This document shows positions 17,296 to 59,617 of a stretch of 64,000 bases of DNA, piece after piece (positions within the stretch are counted from its first letter, which is position 1; every line of letters starts with the position of its first letter). Source of the DNA: Pachyseris speciosa. Taxonomy: Eukaryota > Cnidaria > Anthozoa > Scleractinia > Pachyseridae. The position numbers and the translations under genes are program-made. The stretch lies in contig JAEMWC010000615.1 in NCBI GenBank assembly GCA_016490735.1, forward strand, positions 418,501 to 482,500. Direction: 5' to 3'. Under the pieces are notes generated by a model. That model had not been told where the DNA came from. It ran no database searches and worked only from the letters and a program-made list of their open reading frames with translations.

Positions 17296-18463
17296 ATGGC
17301 GGACGTCAACATAGCATGTGCTATTTTGCGAACAGATGTGTTATCAGGAAAGAAGCCAACTCCTTTTATTCTTATTGTGCTCATCTCAAAAGGCGCAGGT
17401 TGTTTTTCGTTCAGGCAGTTTTAGCAGTACCCAAGAACCAACACCTGGTTTGAGATAGTAAAAGAATCTTACAGTGAGGAACTGTGGTATGAAAATTTCC
17501 GAGTTACCAAGGAAACGTTCTCGTTCATCTTAAATGAAATTCGTGGGGATATATCTCGTAAGGATACAGCTATGCGAAATGCTGTCTCTGCTGAACGCCG
17601 ATTTGCTTTAACCCTCTACTACTTGGCATCAACAGCAGAATTCAGAACAATTGCACATCGCTTTGGTTTTTCAACTTCATTTGTATGCATCTGCGTCAAA
17701 GAGGTTTCCGAGGTCATAAATCGAAAGTTGCCCAGAGTAATAAACTTTTCCCAGGGTGATGATCTAGTCCAAGTAATAGACGGTTATGAGGAAAGATGGG
17801 GGATACCAATGTGTGCCGGGGCCAATAACGGCACACGTATTGCTATTATCGCTCCTAAAGAATGTCAAGCTGACTACGTCAATAGAAAAGGATTCCATAA
17901 CATTATTATGCAAGCTGTTGTGGATTGTAATTATAGATTCAGAGATGTGGTAATTGGATGGCCAGGGAGTGTACATGACGCCCGGGTATTGTGCAATTCG
18001 TCCATTTACAAGAAGGGCAAAGAAAACAAACTTTTTCCATGGATTCAGACTAAACAAATCAGAGATCAGGACATACACCCTTTTCTTATTGGAGATCCTG
18101 CTTATCCTTTTATATCTTGGCTGATGAAGCCTTACCCAGACAACAGCAGCACACCCAGGATTGAACGTGTTTTTAATTATTGTCTGAGTCGTGCAAGGAT
18201 GACTGTCGAAGACATGTTTGGACGATGGAAAGGCAGGTTTTCTCGTTTTTTCGAAACGTGTAGATATGGCTGTGACCTCACTTATTCCCCTCACAAAAGC
18301 ATCCTGCATCCTTCACAACTTGTGTGAAATACAAAATAACAACTTTCTTCCTGAGTGGGAAGAAGTAAATTCCTCTTCGCAAGAACCAGTTGTGCATGAA
18401 GACCATGATATAGAAAGAAGAGATGCTGAGGATGTCCGTGGGACCTTGGCAGAATATTTTTAG
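17296..18463 (+). pseudogene. HARBI1-like DDE nuclease (PIF/Harbinger transposase)
   Basis: The ATG at 17,296 opens a product of normal family length (about 385 codons), with frameshifts near 17,310-17,400, at about 17,445 and at about 18,240. Visible parts are a Cys/Arg-rich N-terminus, a WYENFRVTKETF block, and a helix-turn-helix-like FRTIAHRFGFSTSFV near 17,640. The nuclease core follows: GANNGTRI near 17,820, HDARVL near 17,978 and RMTVEDMFGRWKGRF near 18,198. The family uses an Asp-Asp-Glu triad. Here the first Asp position reads Asn (NNGT instead of DGT), while the second Asp and the Glu remain. With the frameshifts this makes it inactive. Confidence 0.85.
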
Positions 18464-25128: not shown

Positions 25129-25880
25129 AAACGAGAACAAGAGGCTACAATTAGCCTAAACCCGGGCTTGCAATTAGGGATAAGTTAGGGATACAGTATT
25201 GTATCCCTAACTTAGTGCTAAACAAAAGAATAGAGGGAAGTCTGTCTTTCTTACATCGGACGCATTGTGTTTAGCTTGTGTTGGAGTCTATTTCTTTAGA
25301 CCCCTATCAACATATATTCCACTAAAATACAGCTCAACCATTGAGAACAATAATTATAACACTTGTAAAAAATATTTCTAAAAGAACAAGAAAAAGAGAA
25401 ACAGAAAAAATAAAGCCCGTGATATATACCACTAACAGACATCGAACCCGGGTTAGCTGCGTCACAGGCAGGAACAATGACCTTTAGGCCACAGAGGTTT
25501 ATCATTATGCAAGGTGATAAAAATAGTGTATTGATTTCAAAAAAAAACTAAGCACACTTGTTTTCGCTTCGATGGATAATTGTTTGAGAAAGGAAACGCT
25601 TATCGAACGATGTAGGATTTTTTCGCATAAATGTGAATGGAGTCTCGGTGAAATGTGAGTAGAAAATTAATTAGCAGAGTGAAACTGTTTACAAATACGT
25701 CAATCCAGGGTCATTTGAAACACAAGAAAGGAACGTTTCTGGACAGTTTCAAGGGACGCTAGTACATTTGTAAAAACTAATCGCTTATCATTCAAACATT
25801 AAAGTCCAGAAATTAAAATAGTAAATTAACTACCTGTCAAAGTCTCAGGGGTGTGTGATATCCCGTACTTGAGTTATTCA
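25129..25880 (-). repeat. ~700-bp interspersed repeat with tRNA-like Pol III boxes, copy 1
   Basis: The same sequence, with many substitutions, occurs inverted at 56,820-57,530. On the reverse strand near 25,505-25,430 it holds an A-box-like tggcctaaaggtca and a B-box-like gggttcgatgtc, as in tRNA-derived SINEs. Homology runs past the tRNA-like part on both sides, so it is not a simple SINE. A small hairpin (ttagggatac / gtatccctaa) lies at about 25,187-25,210. Confidence 0.7.
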
Positions 25881-26687: not shown

Positions 26688-26902
26688 TCGAAATCATGTG
26701 ATTACCTATACAAATAGGAGTTCACTTGAAGCCTCCACTAAGAAGCAACTCTTCCCAGTTGTATTTCTCATAGTATTTGGATGTGAACATGTTTGAATAA
26801 TGTTTCAGTGGCATAGCCTGGATTGTAAAAGATGCCACATAATTCATCAATATCACTAGTATCCTTTTTAGCTCATGGATGACAAAGTCATGCCATGAGG
26901 TA
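25881..26902. other. Sequence between the interspersed repeat and the virus-like element
   Basis: Includes another B-box-like tRNA remnant at 26,340-26,395 (reverse), and a repeated phrase aaattgcactcg near 26,605-26,690. No gene recognised. Confidence 0.5.
26898..26902. repeat. Target-site duplication aggta (left)
   Basis: The same five bases follow the right end of the element at 42,236-42,240. Confidence 0.65.
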
Positions 26903-27006
26903 AGTAGTATAGGCGGAGTCAATCAAATACCACCCGACCCATATGACCTCGTCGCTCCTCAGTCACGTGGGTCGGGTTGTATTTGATTGAGTCCGCCTAT
27001 ACTACT
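26903..27006. repeat. Self-complementary terminal hairpin, left end
   Basis: Outer arm agtagtataggcggagtcaa and onward is complemented by inner arm ttgattgagtccgcctat...actact at 26,967-27,006. The stem is about 37 bp with a roughly 30-base loop. Each end of the element can therefore fold on itself independently of the other. Confidence 0.85.
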
Positions 27007-27247
27007 GAGATGTCAAACCAAGCCCCGATGCGACTAATTAGAGAATAGTATCTTCTCAGTAACCCACACCCATCACTTGCGATGGAAAACAACGCAAGGA
27101 AACGCGACGCGTCCGTCCAATTAGAAAGAAAACCGTACTCTAAAACCAACGAGATGGAAACCAACTCAACAGAAGCTTAGATCGACGAGGCCGCGCTCCT
27201 TTCCTTTTTGGACAGCGTGTTTTCAGAGGCAAAGCAGCCGACGCCCA
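26903..27247 (+). repeat. Left terminal inverted repeat (~345 bp)
   Basis: Aligns with the complement of 41,864-42,235. It contains the end hairpin, a shared upstream region (cagtaacccacacc, cacttgcgATGGA) and the first roughly 50 codons of the polymerase gene. The left copy lacks about 12 bp (tccattgtatat) near the second Met and about 20 bp of the hairpin loop relative to the right copy. Confidence 0.85.
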
Positions 27248-30200
27248 CCTCTCCCCCCCCCCCCCCCCCTTCCCCCCACACACACAAAAAGCGGAGGCTG
27301 TTTAGGAGGGCCGGCGAGCCGTTGGTCACTTTTGCTGAAACAGTTGCCCCCCAAAGTGCAGTGCGCCACCCACCACCTGTTCTTCGCCCGTACCAACCAC
27401 CTTACCCAACCCCCACCCCTCGACAAACAACCATCAAGACTGAGCTGTTACGAGAGTTGAAACTCCAGTCAAAAGACGGCGAACAGCGGTTAGTTATCAG
27501 GGAGAGATTCGGGGCTTGTTCGACACAACATTCGAGGGGGTTGAAGAGGGGGGTCGAGGGAGGCGCTTTGTTCTTTGGCGTTATCTGAATGGTTTGGAAA
27601 AGGATCAAACGAGGCACTTCATGGAAAAAATTCGTTACAGTGTTAACACCACTCTTTACCTGAGATACGTTAGTCTATATCGGTTGCACAACATCGAGGA
27701 TGGTTATATCATGGTGTACTCCGACAACGTTGACAGCGGCTACCCCTGGTTTCAAACGCTGCAGGCGGCCGGCCGTTGATTGGCGAAAAAGGAAAAGGCA
27801 CGTCTGGAGCTCAAAAAAATTCAGCGACCAAACACGAAATGGGTGTTCGAAAGTTTCTACCGAGTGGATGAAAGAGTCGTGCTTGACCGCCAACCACTGT
27901 TGGGCACGGAGCCGCTTCCAACCTGGTTGCGCAACCTGGCCCACAACCACGGGATGATCGGACTTGACACCTTTCAAGACAGACCTTTGCTTCTGGCGCT
28001 GCTTGGCCGTGCACCGTGGCGCAAGACCGGACAGAAGCACCAACATGGCCCGTGGGTTGGCTCAGAGTTATCTCCAGCTCCCCACCTCCCCCAAACGATT
28101 GTCTCGGAACGTCGCTGGACGAGTTGTACCAGATCGAAAGGCATTTCAGTCGGGCGTTGCCCGCTTCACAATGGCTTGCCATTCGAGTTTACGAGCCCGA
28201 ACGAGGTGTTGAAGGAAATGTGGTTTCGCACCTCCGACGGAATCCAACCAACCAGCTGAGGAACATTCTTCTGACAATTGCAATCTTCGTAGGGCACGCG
28301 TTTTTCATCCGGGACATCACAAAACTTGCGCGTGTTTAACCTTGTGCCCAGTGCAACGCGAGATTCACGAAAATTTCAAATCTCCAACGCCATGCAAACG
28401 ACAGATGTACAAAAGGAGAGACCACGATCGCCTACCGGTGAAACAGCTTGAAAAACCGCAAACGACCTTTGAGAGGGCGTTCTTCCCAAAGAGTGTTCGT
28501 TTCTCGTGCACAGCAACGCGCTGGCTGCAACGAGAGGCACACAAACACAAAACCCACATTCACCACGCGCTGTGCGGGAATGGGGGCGAGCGGTGGATTG
28601 CGGGGGCGCCCGTGGATGGCTTCGACCCCGTGTCCAATACCGTATTTCAGTTTCACGGCTGCTGGTACCACGGGTGCCGCAGGTGTTTTCCTGAAAACCG
28701 AGCCGATCGACGAGTGTGGGATAACGTTGGAAGACCGGTTAACAGCGACCAAAAAACGTACCTCGCGTGGCGGGCTTCGAAGTTGTGGAGATGTGGGGTG
28801 TCAAGTAGGGCCCCAGCAGAGCAACCTCTTGCCCAAACCCTTCACGAAAAGCTACTCCCACGCGATCCTTTACGACTTCAAAGCGTTCGGAGACCGCAAC
28901 CGTCGGAAGGCATCAACGCGGACCCTCACGATCGAAAACGTGCACGTGCTGATTTCCGTTTCGGTCGGAGACACTGTGGAGCCGTAGCTTATGCACATTT
29001 GTGACAAAGACTCAACCACACTTATTCAACACTTCATGGAAGAGTTGGCGCGGCGAGGAAGAAACATCCGAGCGGCAGTGAGGGCAGAGTTCCTTCCGAC
29101 TGACTTGGAGTACCTCCCCAAAAATCAGCGCGGTTTTATCGAAGACTGGTGCAACCAGGTTCCGACCCTCGGTTTCAACTCAGGCAATTACGACTTGAAT
29201 CTTATCAGGGACCACTTCGTGGGACGGCTGACTGACATGACCAAAAAGGTCGTTGTGGCAAAAAAAGCCAACAAAATCATGTCAATCACCACACCCGAGT
29301 TTCGTTTTCTCGACATCGTCGACTACCTTGGTCAAGGGACCAGCTACGACAAATGGGTGAAAACTTTTGAGTGCGAGGGTGAGAAATCATGGTTTCCATA
29401 TGAATGGTTCGACTCGCCCGACAAGCTTGATTACGAAGGACTTCCATCCTATTCCGCGCGGTATTCCAAACTGCGTTGCGAGTACGTGCTTTCATTGAAC
29501 CACTGGGAGCAGTGCAACCGCCTGTTCCAAGAAAAGGGGATTTGGACTTTCACCGACTGGCTGCGGTTTTACAACAACTTGGACGTGGTTCCAGGGCTGT
29601 AGGCCCTGAATAAAAAGCGGGGCTTTTACACAGGGAAAGGAATCGACATTTTGAAAGACGCGGTTTCGTTTCCCGGAGTCCGCATGCACTATTTTCTCCT
29701 GGGAGCGGTCGAAAGGGGCGCCGAGCTGTGGACGCCGGGCAAAGAAGCTTACAAAATACTGAAAGGCACAGTAGTCGGTGGGCCAAGCATCGTCTTCACT
29801 TGGTACCACGAAGCGGGGAAAACCAGCATCCGCAGTTACCAAGTTTCCAGCCCCCGCCCATGCCAGAAAATCGTGGGCTTTGACGCTAACGCTCTTTACC
29901 TCTCAACAATGCTGCAAGACATGCCCTGCGGAAAGGAAAGGATCATGCGCTACGAAGAAGAAGGGGCGGCCAGAGCGGCGCCCGATTTCACGCGAAGGCT
30001 TCGAGCGGGGACCTGGTTTGGTTTCACCAAAGTTGTTCATCGAGATTCCCAGACCTCTGTGGTCGAAATTCGAGGAGATGTGCCTGTTCTTTGTCAACAA
30101 GCAGGTGCCCACCGAAGCCGTTCCACAACACATGTTGGATTACCTGCAGCGCACCGGCAGAAGCCTCACAGACGGATAAAAGCTGGCGGGCGCCCTGGCT

Positions 30201-31457
30201 GCGAAAAAATTGTTGGTCTTCGCCCTCCTGCCGAAATAGTACGTTGATCATGGAGTGGTGATTACAGCTGTTTACCGCACCATCGACTACCAGGCCGCCA
30301 AACCCTTCACTTGGTTTCTGGAAGAAGTCACCATCACCCGAGGGACCGGCGACACGGACAACAGCAAAGCACTCCTCGCCGATGTGTTCAAGCTGGCTGG
30401 CTTGGGACAAGTGGAGCGGGCACATCCTGGACTTTTCAAACTCGAGTGCGAAGGTCGGCGGATGATTGCGACCTGCTCGAAGTGTTATTTCGTGGACGTC
30501 GACGGCTCTGAGGCACACGCCAAGTTCAGCACAAAAGGGATATCATGGAGTGGTGATTAAAGCTGTTTACCGCACCATCGACTACCAGGCCGCCAAACCC
30601 TTCACTTGGTTTGTGGAAGAAGTCACCACCACCCGGCGGACCGGCGACACGGACAAAAGCAAAGCACTCCTCGCCGATGTGTTCAAGCTGCTGGGGAACA
30701 GCGCGTACGGAAAAATGATCGAAGCGGTGGAGCGGCAAACGAACGTGATTTACATGCGAGACGAAAAAGTCGTCGACAGAGCCCTGCAGAGCTTGTTTTT
30801 TGAGGATCTGGACGAAATCGGGGACACGTACAAACTGGAAAGTCGGAAGCCCAAGGTCGTGATAAAGCGCCCCTTCCAAGTCGGAATTGCGGTGTACCAG
30901 CTGGCGAAGCTGCGGATGCTGGAGTTCTACTACGACTTCCTGGACAAGAACGTCGACCGCCAAGACTTAGAGTTGCTCTAGATGGATACGAACAATCTAC
31001 TATCAATCGGACTATCTGACGATCAGTGCCGAGAATCTCGAAGCTGCTGTGAAGCCGGCATTGAGGGAAGTGTTCGACGCGGAAAAAAGAACTGGCTGGC
31101 TTGGGACAAGTGGAGCGGGCACACCCTGGACTTTTCAAACTCGAGTGCGAAGGTCGGCGGATGATTGCGACCTGCTCGAAGCGTTATTTCGTGGACGTCG
31201 ACGGCTCTGAGGCACACGCCAAGTTCAGTACAAAGGGGATATCGAAGAAGCAGAACAAAGTCACGTGGCAGCGTTTCAAGGCGGCACTCGAGGGGCACAA
31301 AGACGCGGCAGCGAACCGGGGTTTGCGCCTGAAAGGATGTCAGATGGTTACTCACCACCGGCAGAAGCTGGGCCTGCGCACGTACTACGACAAACGGCGG
31401 GTTCTGCCAGACGGGATTCACACGGAGCCTCTCGAGTATCATTTGGCCGCAATTTAA
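27082..31457 (+). pseudogene. polB: Protein-primed-type DNA polymerase B (viral)
   Basis: Likely start ATG 27,082 inside the terminal repeat; a CAG-to-TAG change stops it at 27,178, and many later stops and frameshifts follow. In order I see a poly-Pro stretch (17-C run at 27,253), WRYLNGLEKDQTRHFMEKI near 27,585, a C2H2 finger (CAQCNARF...H) near 28,346, and FQFHGCWYHGC near 28,650. Exo I follows as YDFKAF at 28,871, then Exo II GFNSGNYDLNLI near 29,171, PolA FDANALYLS near 29,880, PolB GNSAYGKM near 30,696 and PolC MDTNNLL at 30,982. The exonuclease Glu reads Lys and the second PolC Asp reads Asn. The gene would copy the viral genome from a terminal protein. About 1,450 codons, usual for such elements. 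Confidence 0.85.
30244..30541 (+). repeat. Chimeric duplicated block inside the polymerase gene
   Basis: 30,244-30,393 matches 30,542-30,690, and 30,391-30,540 matches 31,093-31,241. The block is thus a fusion of two later parts of the same gene, skipping the roughly 400 bp between them. Junction overlaps are about three bases (ctg and atc). Confidence 0.85.
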
Positions 31458-31824
31458 GAGCGGAATTAGATGTCAAGGTTTACAATTTTTTTCGCCACGG
31501 CCCACCCCTCCCAGTAGCCAAACGGACTGTAATAAATTTGAGAAAGGCGCTGTTCCCATTTTGAAGCAACTTTTTTCATTTATATAATTTACCTTGGTAA
31601 GATATCTTTAAGGGAGTTTCCGCCTGAACCGGAAATAAAAAAAGCTTGACAGCAGCTTGCTGACTACCAGCAAACCCTGCAGTTCCCCCCCCCCCCCCCA
31701 CCCCCCACCCTTGTTCTGAGACTGAGAAAAAAAGAGAAGACGATGTCATTGTGGGGGAAACATGGTCGAGAAAAAAGAAACTTTCGAACAAGTGTGTCAA
31801 AACGGCAGAGAGGTAAATGAGCTT
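31458..31824. other. Convergent intergenic stretch with 15-C run
   Basis: Lies between the 3' ends of the polymerase (forward) and the next reverse gene. It contains a 15-C run at 31,685-31,699 followed by acccccc. No gene assigned; some reverse frames here may be the 3' part of the neighbouring gene. Confidence 0.5.
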
Positions 31825-32345
31825 GACACAACAATACCCCTTGACACATCGGAAAAGCAACAAGAGGTTGATTCCAAAAAAACGCGACACCTTTGTCAAA
31901 CACGGTATTTTGGAGGGTGTTAACACCGTCAGGTTGGATGGGAAAGAAGTGTACGACCCATCACGACACGAAGCTGGGCACAAGAAAGGTTTCTCAGTTG
32001 GTGGAATTCCTTTTTCAGACGGCAGTGAAACATTCGTTGTATTTCACTTGAAGCTTTTCGGGAATTTCCATGCAGTGGTCGCTGACAAAGTCGTCGATCA
32101 TTTTCAGCTTGTCAAGAAAATCTTTCTCGTCAAGGGGTTCACCCCTGAGATGGAACCTGGTCGCGTCCAGAGTTTTCTTGTACTCCACCCTTGTAAAGCC
32201 GGCCTTTTCGGGTTTTTTTGTCGTATATTTTGGCGGTCGCGACAATTTTCACCACAGCGCCAAAAGCGGTCAAACAGGATTAAGAGTGACTCCTCCTGCA
32301 ATGGCCCCAGTCAGCACCGCCTTTCCAGCAACCACATTACAAAGC
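31825..32345 (-). pseudogene. Unrecognised viral gene with a glycine-rich hydrophobic segment
   Basis: On the reverse strand near 32,330-32,270 there is a hydrophobic VVAGKAVLTGAIAGGVTLNPV. A frameshift leads to FGAVVKIVATAKIY, and then a charged part (FHLRGEPLDEKDFLDKLKM near 32,150) to a stop at 32,015, with degraded continuation towards 31,825. The hydrophobic Gly/Ala run could be membrane-active. It sits directly downstream of the fibre gene on the same strand, so a late virion role is plausible. The opposite-strand frames here look like shadows. No family recognised. Confidence 0.45.
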
Positions 32346-32435
32346 AAATTTTGCGTTGAAATGTTTGGAAAAGCTTTTCATAGCGTGCGTGCGCGCTGGC
32401 CATTGTTATATCAGAAAAGATCATTCTTGTTGTCA

Positions 32436-34451
32436 TCAATTTAAATTGCAGATAAAAAGAACGGAACCACGCATGACGAGTTTTTTACCGTCTCCAGGGT
32501 CTATATCGAGCGAAACAAAATTCGAGTGTCTTACATTCGCGTTCCAAACCAAAGTAGAGCGCACGGTTACTGTAGCGGTGTGCGTTGGGGATGGATGCAA
32601 GTGGTCCAAGGACAGAGTGATTCGTTGTGGTGTGCGCGAGTAAAGGGCGGCGATGTGTACACGAATTTGGGCAATGGTTGCTTCGCCCGGCAAGAGCTCA
32701 CATGTTTCTTCAAAGGGGCCAAAAACGCAGTTCCCCCAAAATTCGAGTTGATGAACTTGAAGTGCCCAAGAAGGTAATACGGTAAACCCACTAACTGTTT
32801 TCCTTTCAAATTCACGTCTTTTTGCAACAAAATTTGCCCGCCGTGAAACAAAATGACCTCGTGAATCCCATGCCCGTTCAGATCCAAATCGACGTGCAAT
32901 TTCATTCTGCCAGAATCATCGATTTCGAACCCGTCCCCGTTTTTACCGACCAGACTGTACCCATTCATGTCCAGGTCGTTATGCGTTGTCATTTGCCCGT
33001 TTGTTCCGCCAAACAATGCCTGATTTCCATTGACCACATTTCGACCATCCAAATTCAAATCATCGCCCAATTTCACTTGGTAAATGGAAAACCCATCCAG
33101 GTCCAGGGCAGTTTCCATCACCATCCCATTGACGCGTCCACAGACAAGCGACAGGCCGTTGCTGTAAACGTTTTTGTAATTCAAATCCAAATCACCCCCC
33201 AATTTCGCTTTCAAAAGCAAATTTCCTTTCAAATCCAAGTCGGGCTGCATTTTCATTTGCCCACCGTCAACCACCAAAAACTGGTCATACACGGTCGAAG
33301 GCACGTTTGAAACGAAGCCGTTCACGCCGCAGACCACCATTCTGCCCGCTGGCGACGAATCTGTTGATTACCCATCCAAATCGAGAAATATGTAGTTGGG
33401 GGGAGGGGTAAATTTTGAAATTGAACCAAGGTTTTCACATGAGGAGCAGCCAAACCAACCGCGGGGAAAGCTTTCGATACCTGCCCCCTGATTGACAAAG
33501 TGGTTTCGCTGACGTTCACACTGACATTTTGCATCTCTGGAGGGAAGTATTCGACAACGAGTGTATAGTAACCAACGGGCAGGCTGAAGCTTTCAGAAAA
33601 AGTTAAATGGGCCGCATCGACATATTTTTTGTTGACGACATCGCCGGGGTTTGTGGGATCTTTGAAATTCGCGAGCACGTTGTTCTCTATTTCAATCCCC
33701 CCCCCCCCCCCCACCCCCATTTTCCCGCCAGCAAGTTTGAGAAAAGGCGCTTGGTTCACATCAACCCTGTTCACGGCATCTTTGTCGTCGGTTGGAGCCC
33801 CCAGATTTTTTATTTTGTGGCTGCCCATGACCAGATCTCTGTACATTTCTCCTGTCCTGTCTCTTCGGTCAAAATTGGAATCGGCATATTCTTTGTTCCC
33901 TGCGTCTGCCGCGGTGAAAGGTGGAGCAAGCTTGGTGATTGTGCTGTTGTTCATGTTCATATCCGCTTGCGCAATTGCATTTAATTTGGTCCGCAAATTG
34001 TCGTCCAAGTATTTTTTGTTGACAGCGTCGCCTTCGCGCGAGCCAGAATCGATGTCTCTCAAGTTACGAAGTCGGTGCCCACCCATATCCTGATCACCCC
34101 ACTAGGGTGTTGGCCCCGTCGATTTTCAGACCGCAACCCGCAACTTCTGAGTCGAGAGGCCTTTTGTTCACCACGTCCAAAATGCGTATTGCGTAGCCCA
34201 CGTTTCGATTCAGGTTTTCCCCCATGTCAAGATTGCCTATCATCGCGGTGCTGCCGTCTTTTTTCACGTAATCCCCATGTGAGCCGGCAGGGCCTTGCGG
34301 GCCTTCAGGGCCTGTTGGGCCCGGCGGGCCAGGGTCGCCTTTCGCCCCATGTTGGCCTCGCGGACCAGGAAAGTTGGGAGGACCAGCGGGGGGGTGGGGG
34401 ATCCCGGGCTTTTCGGAAAAACATGCCTGGCAGCTCCTTCAGCCACCCCAT
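32436..34451 (-). pseudogene. Collagen-like fibre protein with VNKKY and DLDLNG repeats
   Basis: The ATG at 34,451 lies 12 bp after the ATPase stop. A frameshift in the G-rich run near 34,390 leads into Gly-X-Y collagen repeats (GAKGDPGPPGPTGPEGPQGP near 34,340-34,290). Next come three or more units of the phage-tail-fibre type with GHRLRNL...DAVNKKYLD, SHKIKNL...DAVNRVDVN and DVVNKKYVD, at 34,086-33,600. A jelly-roll-like middle follows (33,600-33,360), then a beta-rich array with DLDLKGN, DLDLNYKN and DLDLNGHG at about 33,280-32,860, and a C-terminal domain to 32,436. This is a trimeric fibre architecture that would project from the capsid and bind cells. A 16-G run (reverse strand) lies within it. 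About 670 codons. Frameshifts break it into several frames. Confidence 0.75.
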
Positions 34452-34463
34452 GATTTCAAGTGT

Positions 34464-35153
34464 CTATATCTCCTCATGGAAATTTGTTTTGATCAGTTTT
34501 TTGGGTTTGTCGTAATAAAGGAAAGAGAACTTTTTGTCGTTGGCGCGGTCCAGTGCGCGAGGCTCCACCCCCAGCTCGTCGGCGATGCGTTTGTTTTCTT
34601 TCGGGAGGAAACGGAAAATGCATAAATGACCGCAGTTGTCCCGGATGTTTTTGGGGACCTTGTAAAAGGTTTGGGAAAGATAGATGACACTGCAGTTCCG
34701 GTGCCAACCGTCGATGAAGTAGTTGATGATGTCGTTTTGTTTTGATTTTTTGTTTTGTTTGGTTTTTTTGTTTTTTCACAAACCAGGTCGTCAAACACGA
34801 CGAGTTTTGGGTTGTCAGTGGGCAGCTCCTCAAGCTGAACGATTTCGTCCCCCCAAACGCTTCGACGACTTGGTAACCAAGATGGGGGTCAATGTTCTCG
34901 GCAAAGCCTTGCAGGAGTTTCTGGTACTTGTTTAGGTCGAGGTTTTCGAGAAAAGCAAAACTTTGTCGAACACCAACAGCTGGTAAAGCATGTGCAGCAA
35001 AATGTTTGTTTTGCCGGAATTGCTGGGGTCGCAGAACAACATCCGGAAAACGTCTTCGGGCATGGACGGATCCCCTCGTTCCCAATCCGTCGCGGAAACG
35101 CCTGTGTCATAATTCGGAATTTTGCGGAAAAACCTCCCTTGACACGGCAGCAA
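34464..35153 (-). pseudogene. DNA-packaging ATPase (A32/FtsK-HerA type)
   Basis: The Walker A region near 35,045-35,015 reads DPSNSGKTNILLHML, with Asp where the first Gly of GxxxxGKT is expected. Walker B is VVFDDLV near 34,815-34,790. A YLSQ sensor-like motif follows near 34,680, and the frame ends at the stop 34,464-34,466. A T/G-rich insertion-like tract (tttttgttttgtttgg on the forward strand, 34,735-34,780) shifts or stretches the frame after Walker B. The enzyme drives DNA into the empty capsid. The start is uncertain: no ATG lies near 35,153, and the first in-frame ATG (SMPEDVFRM) is near 35,065. Confidence 0.75.
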
Positions 35154-36105
35154 TGTCCCTGAAAAAGTGGCAGCAACGGGCAGCGGCTGAGGCTGAGCTT
35201 GAACACCAAAAACAAGAAATCGGGCAACAATTCAAAAAGAAAAAAATCGCAAAAGTATTGGGCCAATTGTCGACGACGGAGCTGTTCAAACCGATCACCG
35301 GGCGGCTGGAAAAACCGCCAGAGCCGGAACCCGAGGAAACCGGCCCAAGCTAAGAAATGGACGAGTTCGACAGGCTCAATCCATTCGACTAAGAGGAGGG
35401 TTTCAGACCGGAAGGTGAAATGCTGAAATCCCACCCCCTTAACCGCTTTCAGAAGATGACGGTGATGAGTTGCCGCCACCCCCACCACCTTTAGAGGAGG
35501 TTGGCGATTAGGTTGCAGTTGACATGGGGAAAGCCAACGCCACCAGAGCTTCTCGAAAACTACGAATCGAATGATTTGCGGTGGCTTGGCAGCATGATCA
35601 CGCAGATGAACAGGACTGACCAAGAAGTGGTGAAGACTGGAAGATATGCCGGTTGGCCTTTGGGGGCCCTTGAACGGCGCAGAGACAAAATTCGTGCCCG
35701 AAGAAGTGGAGGCAGGCTCCCGTTAGCGAGCCAGCTCCAGGAAGGAAAGAAGCAGTTGGCGAAAACACCCGCACAGAAACAAGGGGAACCCGCTCCAAGG
35801 CGGCTTCTCCCCCCTTGGAAAAGGCTTTCGAGCAAATCATGGTCCGCAGATCGACCGTTGCTGGGCCAGACGATGAGGATGAGGAGTTTTCGGAAGAAGA
35901 GTGGGTGATGAAGGGCAGCGGGGTGAACATTGACACATTCGATGAAATGATCGAAAAGTTGTACTTGATGCTCGGAAGTATCTGGGCCAAAAACAATTCA
36001 GTGAAACTCCGAAACGCTGTTGCTTCTGTGCTTTCCGAGCTCGTCGATCGCGGGTTTTTCACAAAGGCACAGAAACAAAAAATTATCCGGGATTATATAC
36101 AATGA
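35153..36105 (+). pseudogene. Acidic, Pro/Lys-rich virion or scaffold-like protein
   Basis: The ATG at 35,153 opens a charged helical N-terminus (MSLKKWQQRAAAEAEL, EIGQQFKKKKIAK). An acidic Pro-rich stretch follows (EPEPEE near 35,335 and a poly-Pro near 35,480). The middle contains LLENYESNDLRWLGSMI at 35,545. A better-kept end holds STVAGPDDEDEEFSEEEW and LRNAVASVLSELVDRGF up to the stop at 36,105. At least three frame changes separate the parts. It starts back to back with the ATPase, so both strands may share a promoter region. No family recognised; the composition resembles scaffolding or core proteins. Confidence 0.5.
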
Positions 36106-36279
36106 CTTACCACCTGTTGTTGGACTCAAGCCTTGCGAAGCTGCAAGGATGGTGGGGAGGGGGGGTGGGCCACCGAACAGAAGTCCCACGATTTTTCAAT
36201 CAATATCCCAATATCCCCCCCCCCCCCCCCATTGAGCTCGCCCTGCCGGGAAGCCGCTCTTGACGAGCTGATCACAATG
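36106..36279 (+). other. Junction with 16-C run before the penton gene
   Basis: A frame continues for about 40 codons (DLPPVVGLKPCEAARM) into the 16-C run at 36,215-36,230. It may belong to the 3' end of the preceding gene, with 36,103-36,105 being a secondary stop. Confidence 0.4.
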
Positions 36280-36849
36280 ACCTACTCTTGGCACAACGTT
36301 GCGGAACAGTACAACAACAACAAAGTGAGATAGAGAAAAAAGTATAGCGCATGGAAAACTTTGACTTTTCCTGACGGAATGTATGGTTACACCAACCTCA
36401 ACACGTTTTTGTAGGGGCACACGGGGTTTGTTGACCCCGATGCCGACAAAAAGGAGCACATTTTCAATCTGTACTTCGATTTTCTGGTTTACCGGGTTGT
36501 GGTTGTGATGGCCAAGAACTTCGAGCTCGACCTCTCTGTCGGGAAGTTCGCAAATCTGCTCGTGTTCGACAAAAAGATTTTGAAAGACGGGACGAATTTC
36601 ACGGGCGTCGACTGGATTTTCATTCACTGCGATTTGATCACACGGCGAGCAAAAGACGTGCCAAGCGACGTTTTGTTCAGTCTGTCCACCGTGGGTCGTC
36701 CGGACAGTTTCGCTTTCAAAAAAAGCCCCGGAGTCTCAAATTTCATTCCGTCAACAAAACGCGGATTGACGCCGTGGGAATCCGGATCACAGACGCGCGA
36801 AACAACATTCTGGATATCAATGGGTCTGATGTGGCGCTGGATCTTGTAA
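36280..36849 (+). pseudogene. Penton-like minor capsid protein (single jelly roll)
   Basis: The ATG at 36,280 gives MTYSWHNVAEQYNNN. A TFPDGMYGYTNLNTFL block near 36,365 follows, then NFELDLSVGKFANLLVFDKK, DWIFIHCDLITRRA and VPSDVLFSLSTVG in the frame 36,499-36,849. The order of a DGMY segment, an L-x-F-DKK segment, an IHCDLI segment and an SDVLF segment is that of the penton proteins of Polinton-type capsids. Stops near 36,330 and 36,413 and a frame change near 36,720 break it. It would occupy capsid vertices and hold the fibre. Confidence 0.65.
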
Positions 36850-36902
36850 TCCGAGATCGAATCCCCACCTCATGAGAAAATTATTTTGAAGAATATACGT
36901 AG

Positions 36903-37240
36903 ATGAACCACCAAAGTGGGTGGATGGAAATTTTTGACACGCGCGCCGGTCGATATCGCTACAAACACAAAGGCTCGGGCGTGATTCGCCACACCCTCAT
37001 GACCATCGGGCAAAAATTCACAAGAAAAGCGAATGCACAAAAGCGGCATTCTGCGAAATCCCCGCCTTTCCAGGTGGGAAGAGAAGGAAAAGGAAAGGGA
37101 TGTCGAAAAGGGCGCAATGGTGGCTGAAAAGGGGACAGAAAAAATCCAACAACTGTTGCGGAAACGGCGGCCGCGGCCCTCCCCAGACGCCATGCTGAAG
37201 CTGGCCCGAATTTTTGGCAAACCGACTTTAATTTTTTTTT
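36903..37240 (+). pseudogene. Small basic viral protein
   Basis: The ATG at 36,903 gives MNHQSGWMEIFDTRAGRYRY and RHTLMTIGQKFTRKA. After frameshifts come a Lys/Glu-rich helix (MVAEKGTEKIQQLLRKRR) and PRPSPDAMLKLARIF. It lies between penton and capsid genes and is strongly basic, so a core or DNA-condensing role is possible but unproven. Confidence 0.45.
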
Positions 37241-37256
37241 TTCGTGAATATACGAA

Positions 37257-38498
37257 ATGGAACGTTTCAGGTCACCACGCTATCTCGAAAAGGTGGATTA
37301 TGAGCGGTTTAATCTCGATATCCCGCTCACGTTCCCAGCCAATGGTCAGACCCAAACCAAAACCGGAATAAAGTTTTCTGTGAAAGACCGGGTTGTTATC
37401 CATGACTGGTAAAACGCCTATTTCCATGCTGAGTACAGGTTCGAAGCTCTTGCGGACGGAGCCAACGTTGCGAACAACGCACAAACAGCACCAGTCAACA
37501 AAATACATGGTCGAGAAATCTGCAGGAAAAGTACTTTACGTAGTGAATGACGTCCACAAAGTAATCTTTATCAAAACCTTGTTGGACTATTCTGACGATT
37601 ATTCGAGAAGTGTGGCAAAAGATGAGTTCTGGTATTTTGACACCGACAACACAACCGTGACAAACCCCGCCACCCCCGCAACGAATCTCGAAATCCAAGC
37701 TCGGCACGTCCGTTCGCGGGGGGCTGGCACGGTCAAAACCGTCATCCCCCTCAAACACTTTTCGTTTCTCGAGGAGTTGTCGGACAAACTTCACCCCCCA
37801 ATGCAGCTTCTTTTCGAAATCGAGCTGCAGAGAGACAATGAAATGATCTTTTAGAAGGACGCCACCGGGCGGCGAATTGTCGTCAAAAGGCTTGTGGGTT
37901 CCAAAACTGCAAATGACGCCTGAAGGACAAAAACTGGTCAACGAAAATTTCCCGAAACCGACTCAATGGCGTTACTTGCAAGAAACACTGATCCCCAGCG
38001 ACAGCCGAGGTGATGTCGGTGGACAATGGCAAATAACTCCTGGCGTGAAAAACGCCAAACACGTCTGCGTTTTCTTCCAACAGACACGAAAATAAAACGC
38101 ACCGACCTTCAACCCCTACAGCTTCGACACTTTCGACCTTGATGGGGACGACTCAGCGAAACTGAGCACTTGCCGCCTGCAGTACGGAGGGAGCTATTAC
38201 CCCGAACTAGAGTATGACGGTGAAGAGCACACGCGCATCCACCGCGATCTGATCGATTTCCGATACAGGAGAAATGATCCCAATACGGGAACTGGACAAC
38301 TACTCAACTGTTTACCCTGTCATTTACTTTGACCTCCGAGCGACCAAAGAAAGCATGACAGGTGACTCAAAGAAGTTGGTTTTGCATTACCGGTTGAATG
38401 AAGCCGCCACTGCTCAGAATTACACAATCTTTACTGCCGTTCTGAATGAGGAACAATTTGTGATAAAACAGGTTGGAAATGAGTTGGTTGCAGCATGA
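37257..38498 (+). pseudogene. Major capsid protein (double jelly-roll type)
   Basis: The ATG at 37,257 begins MERFRSPRYLEKVDYERFN and LDIPLTFPANGQTQTK. Stops or frame changes occur at 37,410, about 37,490, 37,854, about 38,095 and 38,270. Clear parts include DWYNAYFHAEYRFEAL (after the first stop), the strand-rich middle EIELQRDNEMIF, the segment from 37,877 (VPKLQMTPEGQKLV), and the well-kept end YPVIYFDLRATKESMTGDSK with HYRLNEAATAQNYTIF and LNEEQFVIKQVGNELV. Size (about 410 codons), position before protease and minor protein genes, and the beta-rich HYRLN end fit the Polinton/adintovirus capsid protein. The family call rests on context and remembered pattern. Confidence 0.65.
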
Positions 38499-38532
38499 AA
38501 CCAAAGGGGGAAGTTCTTTTCTTCAGTATAAG

Positions 38533-39146
38533 ATGGCGACGATGTATCACCCGTTCAAAATCACGCTGACTGACGGCCAAAAGAAAAGCCTTCAGAAAGC
38601 TTTTGCCGCAAAAACGGCTGTGACTCTCCGTGTCAAACCCGAACAGCTTGGGCGTGGTGATGACCTCCTTTTAACCACCACCCAAATCAAGATTGCAAAA
38701 ACTGCACAGCGCGGCAGCAATCTTTTTTTCCACAGCGCTCAGTCTGGCTCGGCCTTTGCTTGCACCGGCGGCCAAAGCTTTGGAAACCGCAGGACTCAGC
38801 TTTGGCTGGCTGTTGAAGAAAATCTTTGGAAAAGGTTTCGGGTCGCAGGAATTGCAGCTCAACGGTTGACCCCAGCCCAGAAAAAAGCTGTGGAAAGAGT
38901 GCTGGTTGGGCGGGGGTTGGTCCGCGGTGGTGGTGCGGCGCAATATGGCGGCTTTCTTGGCATATTGGCTTCCATCGGGGTTCCGCTTGCTATTGAACTT
39001 GTGAAAAAGATGTTCGGAGAAGGAATCCACGTGCGTCCGTGACGCTCACTGCCCCCTCCGCGGCTTCCACCACCTCCCCCTCCTCGAGGAAAAGGAATAC
39101 ACGTCAATCCCCCCTGGTATCGCCCACCATCTGTCTGGGGGCGGTA
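38533..39146 (+). pseudogene. Minor virion protein with VTLRxKPxQLG repeats and hydrophobic C-terminus
   Basis: The ATG at 38,533 is followed by KITLTDGQKKSLQKAF, then a TAVTLRVKPEQLGRGDDLLL unit and a TTTQIKIAKTAQ unit. After frameshifts there is a second TPAQKKAVERVL-like unit near 38,870. A hydrophobic helix follows (GGFLGILASIGVPLAIELV near 38,945-39,003), and a basic/Pro tail ends near 39,146. A DGQK-led helix, a TLR-type repeat and a membrane-seeking helix recur in cnidarian virus-like elements. An adenovirus pVI-like, membrane-lytic or core role is plausible. It sits directly before the protease, its probable maturase. Confidence 0.55.
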
Positions 39147-39164
39147 GGAGGATTACGAAAAAAA

Positions 39165-39501
39165 ATGAAATGCAAGGACGTGCCACTGTCCAACGTTGAT
39201 TTGAGGAATTGGTGTGAGTGGCTCAACATTCCATTCAAGGGAATCTTCTCGTGCAACGAAACCAAGCCTCTGCACCTTTCCCCCTGCATCATCAACATGA
39301 ATGATTTTGGAAGTTTGGCCACGCATTGGGTTTGCTGGTGGCACGGGAAAGTAGTGGGAGAAGGAAATGCTAAAACTGGGGAAGAAAACCTTTATGCGCA
39401 ACGACAACCAAATTCAGGCGATCGACAGTGTGCGGTGCAACTATTATTGTTTGCTGTTTCTCAATGAGCGTAACACCGAACCGCCGGTACAAGACCGATA
39501 G
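39165..39501 (+). pseudogene. Adenain-like cysteine protease
   Basis: The ATG at 39,165 opens a product with LSNVDLRNWCEWLNIPFKG and the catalytic histidine in THWVCWWHGK at about 39,325-39,355. Then a frameshift (39,360-39,375) leads to the catalytic cysteine in VRCNYYCLLFLNER near 39,428-39,470, stopping at 39,501. This is the His ... Cys order of the adenovirus-type (C5) protease that matures capsid and core proteins. The acidic residue between them lies in the shifted part and cannot be read. At about 110 codons it is close to the short Polinton versions. Confidence 0.75.
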
Positions 39502-39509
39502 ACCGGACT

Positions 39510-40237
39510 TTGATGGAAGTGAAATTTCCATCCCTTTCCCGTTTGTCGACTTCGGAAAACTGTGGAACATCGTTTCCGACCCAAACCTTCTCAAAGGTCC
39601 CGAGATTTCGGAGAAATAAGGCCGGGCGATGGTTGCTGAATACAAACGACAGTGCCAAGATTACAAACGCCAGGGCGGCACACGCAGGACTCGGAAAGGG
39701 GTTCACAGGCGTGGATCGCTTCGTTCCCGGTTGTTTTCTGTACCGAACTTCAGCCCGAAGTTGCTGAAAGCTTTTGCGAAAGCGGTCCCGAACCACAAAG
39801 GTTACGCGGACATTCTCGGGAAAACGTTGCGGAACTATTACGGCGCGGGGGTTGACATCCACGCAATGATTGGGAAACTGCCGGCTCCAAAAAAAGGTTG
39901 GACGTTACCTGGACACAACTACACCAGCCCATACAACCCCCTAGACAAACAGCTTGAATACGACCGCGGAACGGGGACAATCGAGAAAATTTATTAACAA
40001 CCAAGTGGCCCCACTGATGCAGTTTTCATGTAGCACGACGACGATTACAGCAGCTGTGGTTTTCGTGTAAAAAAAATATATGGTGAGAACGAAAAAAAGT
40101 GCAAGCTCGTCGCCGACCGCAAAACGGTCAAGGCGGTTGACGCAATCTCGTGGAAACAAAGACAGTGGGGCCACACTCTGGCCCGGAACGCGATTAACAC
40201 CAAACAGAAACTTGGTCTGGGTGTCGCTCGGCGTTGA
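39510..40237 (+). pseudogene. Phospholipase-A2-like virion protein
   Basis: An upstream part (39,510-39,620 and MVAEYKRQCQDYKRQ at 39,629) is basic. The better-kept centre has FAKAVPNHKGYADIL, LPGHNYTSPYNPLDKQL near 39,905 and a stop at 39,995. After a frameshift at about 40,030 comes HDDDYSSCG, then LVADRKTVKAVD and a C-terminal helix ending at the stop 40,235-40,237. A YNPLDK-like calcium loop followed by an HD-xx-Y active-site helix is the layout of the PLA2 domains in parvoviruses and some Polintons, used to breach endosomes. The histidine-aspartate pair is still present. The reading is broken, so the gene is inactive. Confidence 0.65.
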
Positions 40238-40330
40238 GCTCGTTTATTACCCGCCGCACTTCCTCAATGATCTCCCGGTTGGGATACAACCTTTCACTCA
40301 CGAAGGACAAAAAAGTTTGCACTGTGGCAA

Positions 40331-41070
40331 TCATTTTTTTTTTTTTCGCCTACTCAAAACATGCTTGTCTTTAATTTGTCTGGGCTTTTTTTCAAACTTG
40401 TCACAAACTATGTGGTTGAAACTTTCTGAAGCCTTCACAATAAAATTGTTGAGCTTTAACAGCGGCAACCCAAGAGTTTTCATCATTTCACCATACTCTT
40501 GCAAATCATTTTTTGACAAATTCCTGATAGATGGGGAGTCGTAGCCGTTTATTTGACGAGATAACTCTTCACAAATACTTCGGAAGTCAATAAAGGCTCC
40601 ATCAGAAAAATTTTGCAACTTGGATTAGTTGTTTTCAAAACTTCGTCAACAATTTCAAAACCTTTTGTGTGTTCCAACACTTTAATTAACACCCATTTCA
40701 CCAAGTCTTTGTTCACATCTTCGTTTCGCAGTTTGGCGAAAAGTTTTGCACTTTCACACTCAGTTGCACAAGGCTACATGGTTGGTATACTCAGAGTACC
40801 CATCCTCTAAAAAGGTGTACCGCGGATGTTGTCGTAAAGGTCTTGAGATTTTTTTACCTGTTCCACCATCCCCAGAAATGTCTCGGTAAAGGCTGTTTCT
40901 TTTGTTTTCTTCACGAATTCCCATGGGTTCGCCCAGTTTTGAAGTAAAAGTTGAACAAACACCATTTTCTCATAGTCCATTGAAGTTTTGCTTTCCTTTT
41001 TCAACCACTCTTCAATCTCATGAAGAAGTCGTTTTCGCATTTCGCGTGAAATAGAAATTTGATCCGCCAT
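40331..41070 (-). pseudogene. Unrecognised right-arm gene 2
   Basis: The ATG at 41,070 (MADQISISREMRKRLL) gives a charged helical protein with EEWLKKESK and FVQLLLQNWANPWEFVKK to a stop at 40,807. A shifted frame continues with a coherent helical stretch (DVNKDLVKWVLIKVLEHTKG near 40,720-40,660) and then ICEELSRQINGYDSPSIRN to 40,331. The AT content is higher than in the capsid genes. It is convergent with the PLA2-like gene. No motif was recognised; the all-helical, Lys/Glu-rich make-up could suit a replication or regulatory protein. Confidence 0.5.
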
Positions 41071-41094
41071 TGGTACCCCTGTACTTAACCTTTA

Positions 41095-42040
41095 AATTGG
41101 GTGTTGACCTCCTTTGTTTCAAAAACAAATTGACAAACGCGTCTTCATCGAGCTCATAAAGCCAAATTGGAAGGTGTTTATGCAATATCCCGAGTTTATA
41201 ACATTCGAAACAAGGATTGTTACGCCCGCAGATGCGGCATTTTCTACATTTTACAGTTTTAGTGATTCTCCCCCACCGTTCACAATAAGGGCAAACTAAA
41301 TAAAGTCATGCACTTCTTCCCAACCTTTGGTCGCGCGCTCTTCAACTTTCGCGACGAGAACCTCCTTCCAAATCCTTTCTCGGAGTCCTGCAGAAAGAGC
41401 TTGAATATCTTGGGTAAGCGAACAATTGGTTGCCATATCGGAAACAACAAGAGTTGTGTCTCGGGTGGTACCCAAGAGCTGCGTTTCTTGAACAGGGTGG
41501 TCAGCATGACAACCCCTGCATCCACTCCTCCCACACCCAAGCGGGGGGTCGTCCATTTCTTCCCAAAAGAGAGAAGGGGCGCCGGTTCTCAAACAAATAT
41601 CACTCTCATTGCATCCGCTGCATTTCAAACACCGAAAAGAACACAAGTCTCCCCCCCCCCCCCTCCCCCACCCCCTTCTCCCGGGATCGAGTAGCGGACG
41701 CGGTTGGGTTTTTTCTCCTCCTCACAAGGGGGTGGTGGTGGGGGTACAGCCGCATGATATCTTCCTTCATTTCTGGCCAGCTCCGGAAGGAAGTTTGTTG
41801 GGGGCGGGCGGGCTCTGACCGCTTTCTGCGGGGGGAAGGCACTGATCGATTTTTGCGAGGGGCGGGCGTCGGCTGCTCTGTCTTCGTAAACACACTGTCC
41901 AAAAAGGCAAGGAGCACGGCCTCGTCGATCTGGGCTTCTGTTGAGTTGGTTTCCATCATATACAATGGATCGTTGGTTTTAGAGTACGGTTTTCTTTCTA
42001 ATTGCACGGACGCGCCGAGTTTCCTTGCATTGTTCTCCAT
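41095..42040 (-). pseudogene. Right-arm gene 1: N-terminus shared with the polymerase, Cys-rich zinc-binding C-terminus
   Basis: The ATG at 42,040 lies in the right terminal repeat. The first roughly 50 residues (SVQLERKPYSKTN, then METNSTEAQIDEA and FLDSVF) are nearly the same as those of the polymerase at the other end. Past the repeat it becomes Arg/Pro-rich, crosses a 13-G run (reverse strand, frame change), and reaches a cysteine cluster (CSFRCLKCSGC, CGRSGCRGC near 41,645-41,510) and a helix. A second cluster lies near 41,270-41,190 in another frame (CPYC, CRKCRIC, CFEC). These look like two zinc-binding modules. No family recognised. Confidence 0.55.
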
Positions 42041-42235
42041 CGCAAGTGATGGGGTGTGGGTTACTGAGAAGATGCCATTCTCTAATTGGTCGCATCGGGA
42101 GTTGGTTTGACATCTCAGTAGTATAGGCGGAGTCAATCAAATACAACCCGAGCCATGTGACCGAGGAGCTAAGCGGAGCGGAGCGACGATGTCACATTGG
42201 TCGGGTGGTATTTGATTGACTCCGCTTATATTACT
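41864..42235 (-). repeat. Right terminal inverted repeat (~372 bp)
   Basis: Complement of the left repeat with about 90% similarity by eye and two indels. It includes the ATG at 42,040 and the upstream region. Confidence 0.85.
42117..42235. repeat. Self-complementary terminal hairpin, right end
   Basis: agtagtataggcggagtcaa at 42,117 and its complement ending tattact at 42,235 form a roughly 35-bp stem. The 49-base loop contains a GC-rich inner palindromic stretch (gagctaagcggagcgg). Confidence 0.85.
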
Positions 42236-42240
42236 AGGTA
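42236..42240. repeat. Target-site duplication aggta (right)
   Basis: Matches 26,898-26,902. Confidence 0.65.
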
Positions 42241-56819: not shown

Positions 56820-57530
56820 TACTAATCTAATTTTGAGTGGTACATTTTAATGAATAATTTTATACACCCCTGAGACTTAAACAGGTAGTTTATTTACTAT
56901 TTTTTCACAATATCTGAATTTCTGGACATTAGTTTCAGAAACCTTACTCTCTTTCTTATGTTTGTAAACAGAATATTTTTTCTTCACACATTTCACCGAG
57001 ACTCCATTAACGTCTATGCGAAAAAAATCCTACGTCGTTTGATAAGCGTTTCCTTTCTCAAACACTTAGCAGAAATATTCATCGAGGCGAAAATCAGTGT
57101 GCTTAGATTTTTTTTTTTTTTGTTTTGTAATAAATAACCTATTTTTACCTCATTAGCTATGCTGAACCCCAGTGGTCTAGAGGTCATTGTTGCTGTCCCT
57201 AATGTAAACAACCCGGGTTCACCTCCTACTAGTGGCACCGATCGCGGACTTTTTTTCTTCTTCTTTTATAAATAATTTTTACAAGTGTTATTATTATTGT
57301 TCTCAATGGTTGAGCTGTAAAGCAATTTTATAATTTTAAGGGGATATTTGTTGATCTGATAGGGGTCTACGGACATACACTGCAAAGAGATAGACTCCAA
57401 CACAAGCTAAGCGCAATGCGTCCGATGTAGAAAGACAGACTTCTATTCTTTTGTTTAGCGCTAAATTAGGGATACAATACTGTTTTTTGCAAGCCCGAGT
57501 TTAGGCTAATTGTAGCCTCTTGTTCTCAAT
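56820..57530 (+). repeat. ~700-bp interspersed repeat with tRNA-like Pol III boxes, copy 2
   Basis: Inverted relative to 25,129-25,880. Shared blocks include gtttgagaaaggaaacgc (complement), tggagtctcggtgaaatgtg and ggacgcattg. The A-box-like agtggtctagaggtca and B-box-like gggttcacctcc lie at 57,168-57,225. Confidence 0.7.
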
Positions 57531-59178: not shown

Positions 59179-59617
59179 CAGGGGCACCCAACGACAAGTT
59201 TCGGTAGATATCTGTTCGGTGGAGGGTAGTTCGCCTAAGGCTTTCGGCGTCGATTAAAGAGTGCACTCGGATTTTCGTAAGTAAAACGTGGCCTAAAAGA
59301 TTCGTAATGTGGCAATCTTAACCCCTGAGGTTTTCGGAAAGGTCGTTATTGCTGTTTTTGGCAGTAAAAAACGTCAGCTAGCATTTTCGGAAAGAAAAAA
59401 AGGTTCCCTAGAAAGTTCATTTCAGCTAGTATTTTCTCAAAGAAAGATTTTGTTCCCTAAAATTTTCGGACAATTAACATTTCAGCTAGGGAATCCCGAA
59501 CAGATCAAAGTTTTCTAGCTAACCAAAACATCACTTTAAACAGACTTCAAACACCATAACGTACTTAAAAATGCCTTTCTACAGCTTTTGGCTGGTTTGG
59601 CTCGTTGGGTGCCCCTG
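59179..59617. mobile_element. CAGGGGCAC MITE, copy 1 (439 bp)
   Basis: Ends caggggcacccaacga and tcgttgggtgcccctg are exact inverted repeats, flanked by the 6-bp duplication atattc (59,173-59,178 and 59,618-59,623). The interior has several copies of ttttcggaaa and cagctag phrases. About 450 bp of it recurs inverted at 62,692-63,138. Confidence 0.85.

What the first reader, a model, noticed from the sequence alone, without database searches (positions are those of the whole stretch)
26903..42235. A 15.3-kb virus-like element with a full particle-building gene set but no visible integrase
The sequence shows a PolB, packaging ATPase, capsid-type, penton-type, adenain-type and PLA2-like gene between inverted repeats with a 5-bp target duplication. 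Polintons and adintoviruses normally also encode a retroviral-type integrase, and I found none in any frame. Either it was lost in this copy, is too decayed to see, or the element inserts by another route, possibly involving one of the two unrecognised right-arm genes.
Basis: partly seen in the sequence, partly recalled or inferred. Interest (0 to 1): 0.85.

Follow-up and report, generated by a model that had tools for sequence, protein, structure and literature searches.

The report
Decayed polinton-like virus lacking integrase
An old, broken copy of a polinton-like virus sits in this genome between matching ends; it carries copying and particle-building genes but no recognisable gene for inserting itself, although its ends look like those made by the usual polinton inserting enzyme.

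Summary
The element is real: 26903-42235, GC 0.502 against 0.393 outside, terminal inverted repeats with 320 of 351 ungapped columns identical, and a 5-bp duplication AGGTA. Tools support a PolB piece, an A32-type packaging ATPase, a collagen/phage-type fibre and a gene with 166 relatives. Capsid, penton, protease and PLA2 names rest on motifs I recall. No integrase was seen among the listed matches of 292 of 295 stop-to-stop pieces of 32 aa or more. In a small control this level of decay left a DDE domain visible in 4 of 5 copies. Most likely a Maverick-type integrase, not encoded in this copy now, inserted it: the gene was lost, or was supplied in trans. Whether intact relatives carry an integrase is untested: no animal-genome collection was on offer and the genome search did not complete.

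The parts
26898..26902 (.). left target-site duplication AGGTA
42236..42240 (.). right target-site duplication AGGTA
26903..27253 (+). left terminal inverted repeat, begins AGTAGT
41857..42235 (-). right terminal inverted repeat, read inward begins AGTAAT
26903..27006 (+). left terminal palindrome: two 45-nt arms (91% complementary) around a 14-nt loop; inner arm ends ACTACT
   Evidence: DNA fold -42.6 kcal/mol, z -15.6
42117..42235 (-). right terminal palindrome: two 45-nt arms (89% complementary) around a 29-nt loop
   Evidence: DNA fold -35.8 kcal/mol, z -10.1
27082..31450 (+). PolB gene, interrupted by stops and frameshifts and by internal duplications; first codons lie in the TIR; 3' end approximate
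   Evidence: Pfam DNA_pol_B_2 E 1.7e-4 at 30466-30978; coding signal on + strand in most, not all, windows; duplications
31900..34455 (-). fibre-like gene: collagen stretch, then phage tail-fibre-type repeats; low end uncertain
   Evidence: Pfam Collagen E 2.2e-6; 33325-34101 matches PHROG head decoration E 7.6e-14 and tail fibre E 1.3e-13 (no single stretch passing alone) while 32570-33367 matches none; tblastn to phage tail fibres best E 2e-4
34467..35350 (-). A32/FtsK-type packaging ATPase, broken; high end uncertain
   Evidence: 34467-34775: Pfam Pox_A32 E 3.6e-5, PHROG terminase large subunit E 9.9e-9; pieces 34496-34888 and 34892-35722 matched none
35260..36105 (+). unrecognised gene between ATPase and penton-like gene; start approximate
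   Evidence: open pieces, part with coding signal; piece 35674-36102 only chance-level Pfam match E 0.35
36300..36900 (+). penton-like gene (name from recalled motif only)
   Evidence: open pieces, coding signal in most windows; no match
37000..38430 (+). major-capsid-like gene (name from recalled motif only)
   Evidence: open pieces, coding signal in most windows; no Pfam match, PDB chance level, best E 0.59, model unusable
38533..39039 (+). conserved virion-cluster gene with 166 relatives
   Evidence: best E 2.4e-41; 40-54% identity in the 120 listed rows; alignment
39150..39600 (+). protease-type gene (adenain by recalled motif)
   Evidence: 68% identity over 63 aa to the ORF following in P0071; no Pfam match
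39640..40234 (+). PLA2-like gene, broken
   Evidence: HDxxY motif at 40034, once in six frames of the element; no Pfam match to a PLA2 family
40197..41091 (-). right-arm gene B, unrecognised, AT-richer
   Evidence: minus-strand coding signal in 6 of 8 windows starting 40203-40903; Pfam chance level only; one piece against PDB, best E 0.29; protein database not searched
41021..41436 (-). right-arm reading frame A, cysteine pairs by eye, unrecognised
   Evidence: open pieces; no window above 3 in the coding scan at 41003-41503; no candidate homologue, no Pfam, no PDB match at E 1
41609..42040 (-). right-end reading frame whose first codons are shared with the PolB gene through the TIR
   Evidence: 108 candidates, none at E 0.001

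Best explanation
This is an old endogenous copy of a linear polinton/adintovirus-like DNA virus. It entered the chromosome as a linear molecule joined at its AGTAGT-type ends by a Maverick-type (rve, DDE) integrase, leaving a 5-bp duplication. The copy now shows no integrase gene: either the gene was lost from this copy or its lineage, or the lineage relies on integrase made in trans by resident relatives. Shown: ends, duplication, PolB piece, ATPase, fibre, gene layout, no integrase match. Inferred: entry by an rve integrase, protein-primed replication, the capsid-type gene names, and the reason for the missing gene.
For: Left end AGTAGT, right end AGTAAT; the commonest vertebrate Maverick end is (AGT)2//(ACT)2 (PMC8097293, section 7 read). 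5-6 bp duplications are stated for mavirus and Maverick/Polinton elements (PMC8547959, passage). PolB, A32 ATPase and TIRs of several hundred bp fit the kind. No rve, chromodomain, integrase zinc-binding or tyrosine recombinase family among the listed Pfam matches of 292 of 295 pieces of 32 aa or more (one search shows 25 of 34 families), nor in NCBIfam on 150 pieces at E 0.05. Borrowing of a resident polinton's integrase by integrated PLVs without one was proposed in print (PMC4642659, passage).
Against: The duplication is 5 bp, not the 6 bp of vertebrate Mavericks. One copy only was examined. No gene context of a relative was available, so neither trans supply nor deletion is shown. The decay control is small, and at twice the decay it failed in 5 of 5. 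Pfam missed other genes thought to be present here (protease, PLA2-like).
Confidence: 0.62

Rival explanations
1. The integrase gene is present but too decayed or too divergent to be seen.
For: The protease and PLA2-like pieces gave no Pfam match either, so the profile search misses genes here. A host DDE domain decayed to 10% substitutions and 1.2% indels was found in 0 of 5 copies.
Against: TIR divergence suggests about 4-5% change per copy if the repeats were identical at insertion (31 of 351); at 5% and 0.6% indels the control was found in 4 of 5. PolB and ATPase pieces are seen. The end opposite PolB, where vertebrate Mavericks have their integrase module, holds minus-strand reading frames that match no integrase.
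Confidence: 0.15
2. The lineage uses no rve integrase: one of the right-arm genes is an unknown recombinase.
For: Right-arm reading frames have no recognised relative: the right-end frame and frame A in the protein database, all in Pfam, A and a piece of B in PDB.
Against: No recombinase signature in the scans; end motif and duplication are of the rve-integrase kind. Frame A has no codon-usage signal.
Confidence: 0.08
3. The viral DNA was inserted by chance repair or by a retrotransposon's enzyme, and the ends and duplication are coincidental.
For: Integration of viral DNA by host repair is known in general (recalled, no call).
Against: Insertion is exactly end to end, with an exact 5-bp direct duplication and a Maverick-type end motif.
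Confidence: 0.05

Closest known systems
Adintoviruses (Eupolintoviridae, formerly Adintoviridae), including entries named for corals (Stylophora, Corynactis, Rhodactis)
   Same: PolB, A32-type ATPase, a cluster of virion-type genes, TIRs (taxon names; renaming: PMC12451622, passages)
   Different: No integrase found, while the published description includes an rve integrase with chromodomain (PMC11071296, passages). No sequence of a named adintovirus was available to compare.
Vertebrate Mavericks / Polintons
   Same: AGTAGT-type ends, TIR length (351/379 bp; published mean 402), size 15.3 kb (published mean 16.9 kb), PolB and ATPase (PMC8097293)
   Different: 5-bp instead of 6-bp duplication; no integrase; other gene order; palindromic termini, which the section read does not mention
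Integrated polinton-like viruses (PLVs) without integrase
   Same: Capsid-type element in a chromosome without its own integration enzyme (PMC4642659, passages); collagen and phage-type fibres are also reported in PLVs (PMC12220804, passages)
   Different: This one has PolB and a protease-type gene; PLVs mostly lack pPolB (PMC11071308, passages) and those of PMC4642659 lack the protease
Parvoviruses and bidnaviruses
   Same: Terminal self-complementary hairpins; PLA2-type motif (resemblance recalled)
   Different: No NS1-type helicase or parvoviral capsid family among the listed matches; a polinton-type packaging ATPase is present

Membership tests
[quoted passage not shown]
   Pfam DNA_pol_B_2 E 1.7e-4 for one piece, below the curated cut-off; protein priming not testable
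Polinton/Maverick (Polintoviricetes) | retroviral-type integrase | tested here: not met
   no listed match in 292 of 295 pieces of 32 aa or more; may be lost in this copy
Polinton/Maverick (Polintoviricetes) | TIRs of hundreds of bp with Maverick end motif | tested here: met
   against PMC8097293; right end differs from the motif at one base
Polinton/Maverick (Polintoviricetes) | 5-6 bp target duplication | tested here: met
   AGGTA, 5 bp; 5-6 bp for MPEs in PMC8547959; vertebrate Mavericks have 6 bp
Polinton/Maverick (Polintoviricetes) | packaging ATPase of A32/FtsK type | tested here: met
Polinton/Maverick (Polintoviricetes) | double jelly-roll major and single jelly-roll minor capsid proteins | tested here: inconclusive
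   recalled motifs only; searches gave nothing usable
[quoted passage not shown]
   no reference adintovirus sequence available; the Starrett 2021 paper not held
Adintoviruses (Eupolintoviridae) | rve integrase with C-terminal chromodomain | tested here: not met
   description from PMC11071296 (passages)
Parvovirus-like hairpin-ended viruses | terminal self-complementary hairpin | tested here: met
Parvovirus-like hairpin-ended viruses | NS1-type superfamily 3 helicase/endonuclease | tested here: not met
   no such family among the listed Pfam matches

The most novel reading that the evidence does not exclude
A lineage of particle-building, PolB-bearing viruses of this host has given up its own integrase, ends in terminal hairpins that carry the integrase site in both orientations, and enters chromosomes by borrowing the integrase of resident Mavericks.
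Probability: 0.18. Interest if true: 0.7.

Novelty: new variant of a known kind. Interest (0 to 1): 0.4.

Why it matters
Polintons are named for polymerase plus integrase. A family with particle genes and integrase-type ends but no integrase would be a natural parasite of other polintons and would show how integrating viruses can lose integration. Palindromic ends would also make a link between protein-primed polintons and hairpin-ended viruses testable. If the gene is missing only from this one copy, the missing gene is ordinary and only the palindromic ends remain of interest.

Tried and rejected
Relatives' DNA: the search for related loci in viral contigs with a PolB piece, a capsid piece, two alignments of the conserved gene and the protease alignment confirmed no relative; these scans rest on short exact patterns and are not exhaustive. 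The conserved gene in genome contigs: none. A TIR pattern: 0 stretches in viral contigs, 1 in genome contigs (a bacterial contig, L001, not followed up, taken as chance). Conserved gene by tblastn against phages: no match. PolB piece against phages: 8 records, best E 0.5, chance level.

Right-arm frames: the right-end frame had 108 word-sharing candidates, none at E 0.001; frame A none. Profile of the conserved gene against PDB: 0 at E 1. Its AlphaFold model (38 sequences, mean pLDDT 66.6): 0 matches at E 0.001 in BFVD or PDB. Capsid piece model: mean pLDDT 37.6, not used. A C2H2 zinc-finger match (E 0.0025) among the short pieces was not placed: 10 pieces tried singly gave none. PHROGs on 150 pieces: 31 families at E 0.01, 25 shown, being fibre, tail, head and terminase entries and some unnamed, no integrase among those shown. 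Rfam at gathering scores: one tRNA, in the flank.

Not favoured: a host insertion as the cause of the lower GC at 40.2-41.2 kb, because 6 of 8 windows starting 40203-40903 carry minus-strand coding signal.
Full report
What is there. The stretch 26903-42235 has GC 0.502 against 0.393 outside; 1-kb windows run 0.417-0.551 inside and 0.319-0.478 outside, and the lowest inside stretch is 40201-41200 (0.37-0.43 in 200-bp windows). It is bounded by inverted repeats, 26903-27253 against 42235-41857, 84.4% over 379 gapped columns, 320 of 351 ungapped columns identical. Immediately outside both ends stands AGGTA; a sixth base does not match. A 5-bp match between random flank positions occurs with frequency 0.0014.

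The ends. The left end begins AGTAGT; the right end read inward begins AGTAAT. In vertebrate Mavericks the commonest end is 5'-(AGT)2//(ACT)2-3', TIRs average 402 bp and elements 16.9 kb (PMC8097293, section 7 read), with 6-bp duplications (passage). Mavirus and Maverick/Polinton elements are said to make 5-6 bp duplications (PMC8547959, passage). So ends and duplication are of the kind expected from an rve integrase, and I see no need for another route.

Terminal palindromes. Each terminus is a palindrome: arms 26903-26947/26962-27006 (91% complementary, 14-nt loop) and 42117-42161/42191-42235 (89%, 29-nt loop). As single-stranded DNA they fold at -42.6 and -35.8 kcal/mol, z -15.6 and -10.1, with 0 of 200 shuffles as stable in each case. 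The inner arm repeats the end motif, so each end carries it in both orientations. Since both TIRs share the palindrome, it most likely predates the insertion. A 19-base part of the arm occurs 4 times in the window (up to 3 mismatches), all in these arms. One literature search was aimed at such ends (listing of 15 of 262; one listed paper opened for passages) and showed none for polintons, which is weak evidence. What the hairpin does is unknown; self-priming of a displaced strand, or a double site for a terminal protein or integrase, are guesses.

Genes. Left to right: PolB (+), fibre (-), ATPase (-), an unknown gene (+), penton-like (+), capsid-like (+), the conserved gene (+), protease-type (+), PLA2-like (+), then two or three right-arm frames (-). 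Tool support: PolB piece E 1.7e-4, below the curated cut-off; collagen E 2.2e-6; for piece 33325-34101 PHROG head decoration E 7.6e-14 and tail fibre E 1.3e-13, though no single repeat passes alone and piece 32570-33367 matches none; ATPase E 3.6e-5 and 9.9e-9. The gene at 38533-39039 has 166 relatives at E 0.001 or better among 499 candidates; the 120 listed are 40-54% identical. In some relatives the protease frame follows in the same ORF, as next door here. Several relatives stand for dozens of member sequences (87, 66, 52, 51), so the family is large. Capsid and penton names are recalled motifs without tool support. The PLA2-like gene has HDxxY once in six frames and no match to a PLA2 family in Pfam.

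Integrase. Pfam on 150 of 153 pieces of 60 aa or more (34 families at E 0.5 or better, 25 shown, the last shown at 0.16) and on 142 of 142 pieces of 32-59 aa (18 families at E 0.3 or better, all shown) listed no rve, integrase zinc-binding, chromodomain or tyrosine recombinase. A MuDR DNA-binding entry at E 0.078 is at chance level. NCBIfam on the same 150 pieces at E 0.05 listed 14 families, no integrase. Right-arm pieces tested singly gave none. In vertebrate Mavericks the integrase belongs to the module opposite to PolB (PMC8097293); here that end holds minus-strand reading frames of other kinds. Codon-usage signal, trained on pieces I took as genes, favours the minus strand in 6 of 8 windows starting 40203-40903 and exceeds the threshold in 0 of 6 windows starting 41003-41503, so a coding role of frame A is uncertain and roughly 0.6 kb near the right end is unexplained.

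Could decay hide it? TIR differences (31 of 351) mean about 4-5% per copy if the repeats were identical at insertion; 5 synonymous against 11 amino-acid-changing codon differences among 56 codons of the shared reading frame fit drift without constraint. As a control I decayed a host Harbinger-type DDE ORF (best Pfam E 3.6e-23 intact) in a script and scanned the longest open piece of each copy: found in 4 of 5 copies at 5% substitutions and 0.6% indels, in 0 of 5 at 10% and 1.2%. So a complete integrase at the estimated decay would probably, not surely, have been seen. The control is small and is another DDE family, and the protease and PLA2-like genes are missed by Pfam here, so sensitivity is limited.

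Family view. I could not obtain DNA of relatives: five related-loci scans of viral contigs and one of genome contigs confirmed none, a pattern scan of viral contigs none, and the genome search did not complete (thirteen calls). Hence whether intact members carry an integrase is open. In print, integrated PLVs without any integration enzyme are known, and borrowing of a resident polinton's integrase was suggested (PMC4642659, passages); genomes with adenovirus-class virion proteins that lack recognisable PolB and integrase are mentioned (PMC11071296, passages). Cnidarian capsid genes fell outside the main Maverick-Polinton cluster in one study (PMC10120064, passage). A Stylophora coral adintovirus with a separate terminal-protein gene is mentioned (PMC11071308, passages); its integrase status was not visible. 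The original adintovirus paper was not held.

Host. Not identified. The flanks carry a Harbinger-type DDE ORF, and reverse-transcriptase and GIY-YIG pieces. That it resembles a cnidarian is my recollection of similar sequences, not a test.

Verdict. A moderately old endogenous polinton-type virus with Maverick-type ends, no detectable integrase and unusual palindromic termini. By the published definitions it fails the integrase criterion, so I do not file it as a Polinton or adintovirus in the strict sense; it works like, and probably descends from, one.

Noticed in passing
26903-27006 and 42117-42235: Both element termini are long palindromes folding into stable hairpins, with the Maverick-type end motif repeated at the inner side.
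   Followed up: yes
30247-31243: PolB region holds internal duplications: 30247-30400 like 30542-30694 (95%) and 30393-30544 like 31092-31243 (97%).
   Followed up: partly
33325-34438 (-): Fibre-like gene combines a collagen stretch with repeats matching phage tail-fibre and head-decoration families.
   Followed up: partly
27082-27253 and 41857-42040: The TIRs contain the first codons of two different reading frames, so PolB and the right-end frame share an N-terminus.
   Followed up: partly
41003-41600: About 0.6 kb of the right arm without codon-usage signal and without recognised genes.
   Followed up: partly
17425-18324: Long open reading frame of a Harbinger-type DDE transposase (the name Harbinger is recalled).
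   Followed up: no
6732-7194: A 165-bp segment repeated at 98% identity, with a tRNA match at 6861-6934 on the minus strand.
   Followed up: no
25133-25666 and 56978-57527: Inverted copies of an unknown repeat (72%) on either side of the element.
   Followed up: no
59179-59617 and 62042-63472: A 131-bp satellite-like array; 59179-59617 matches 62692-63138, between its two parts, in inverted orientation.
   Followed up: no
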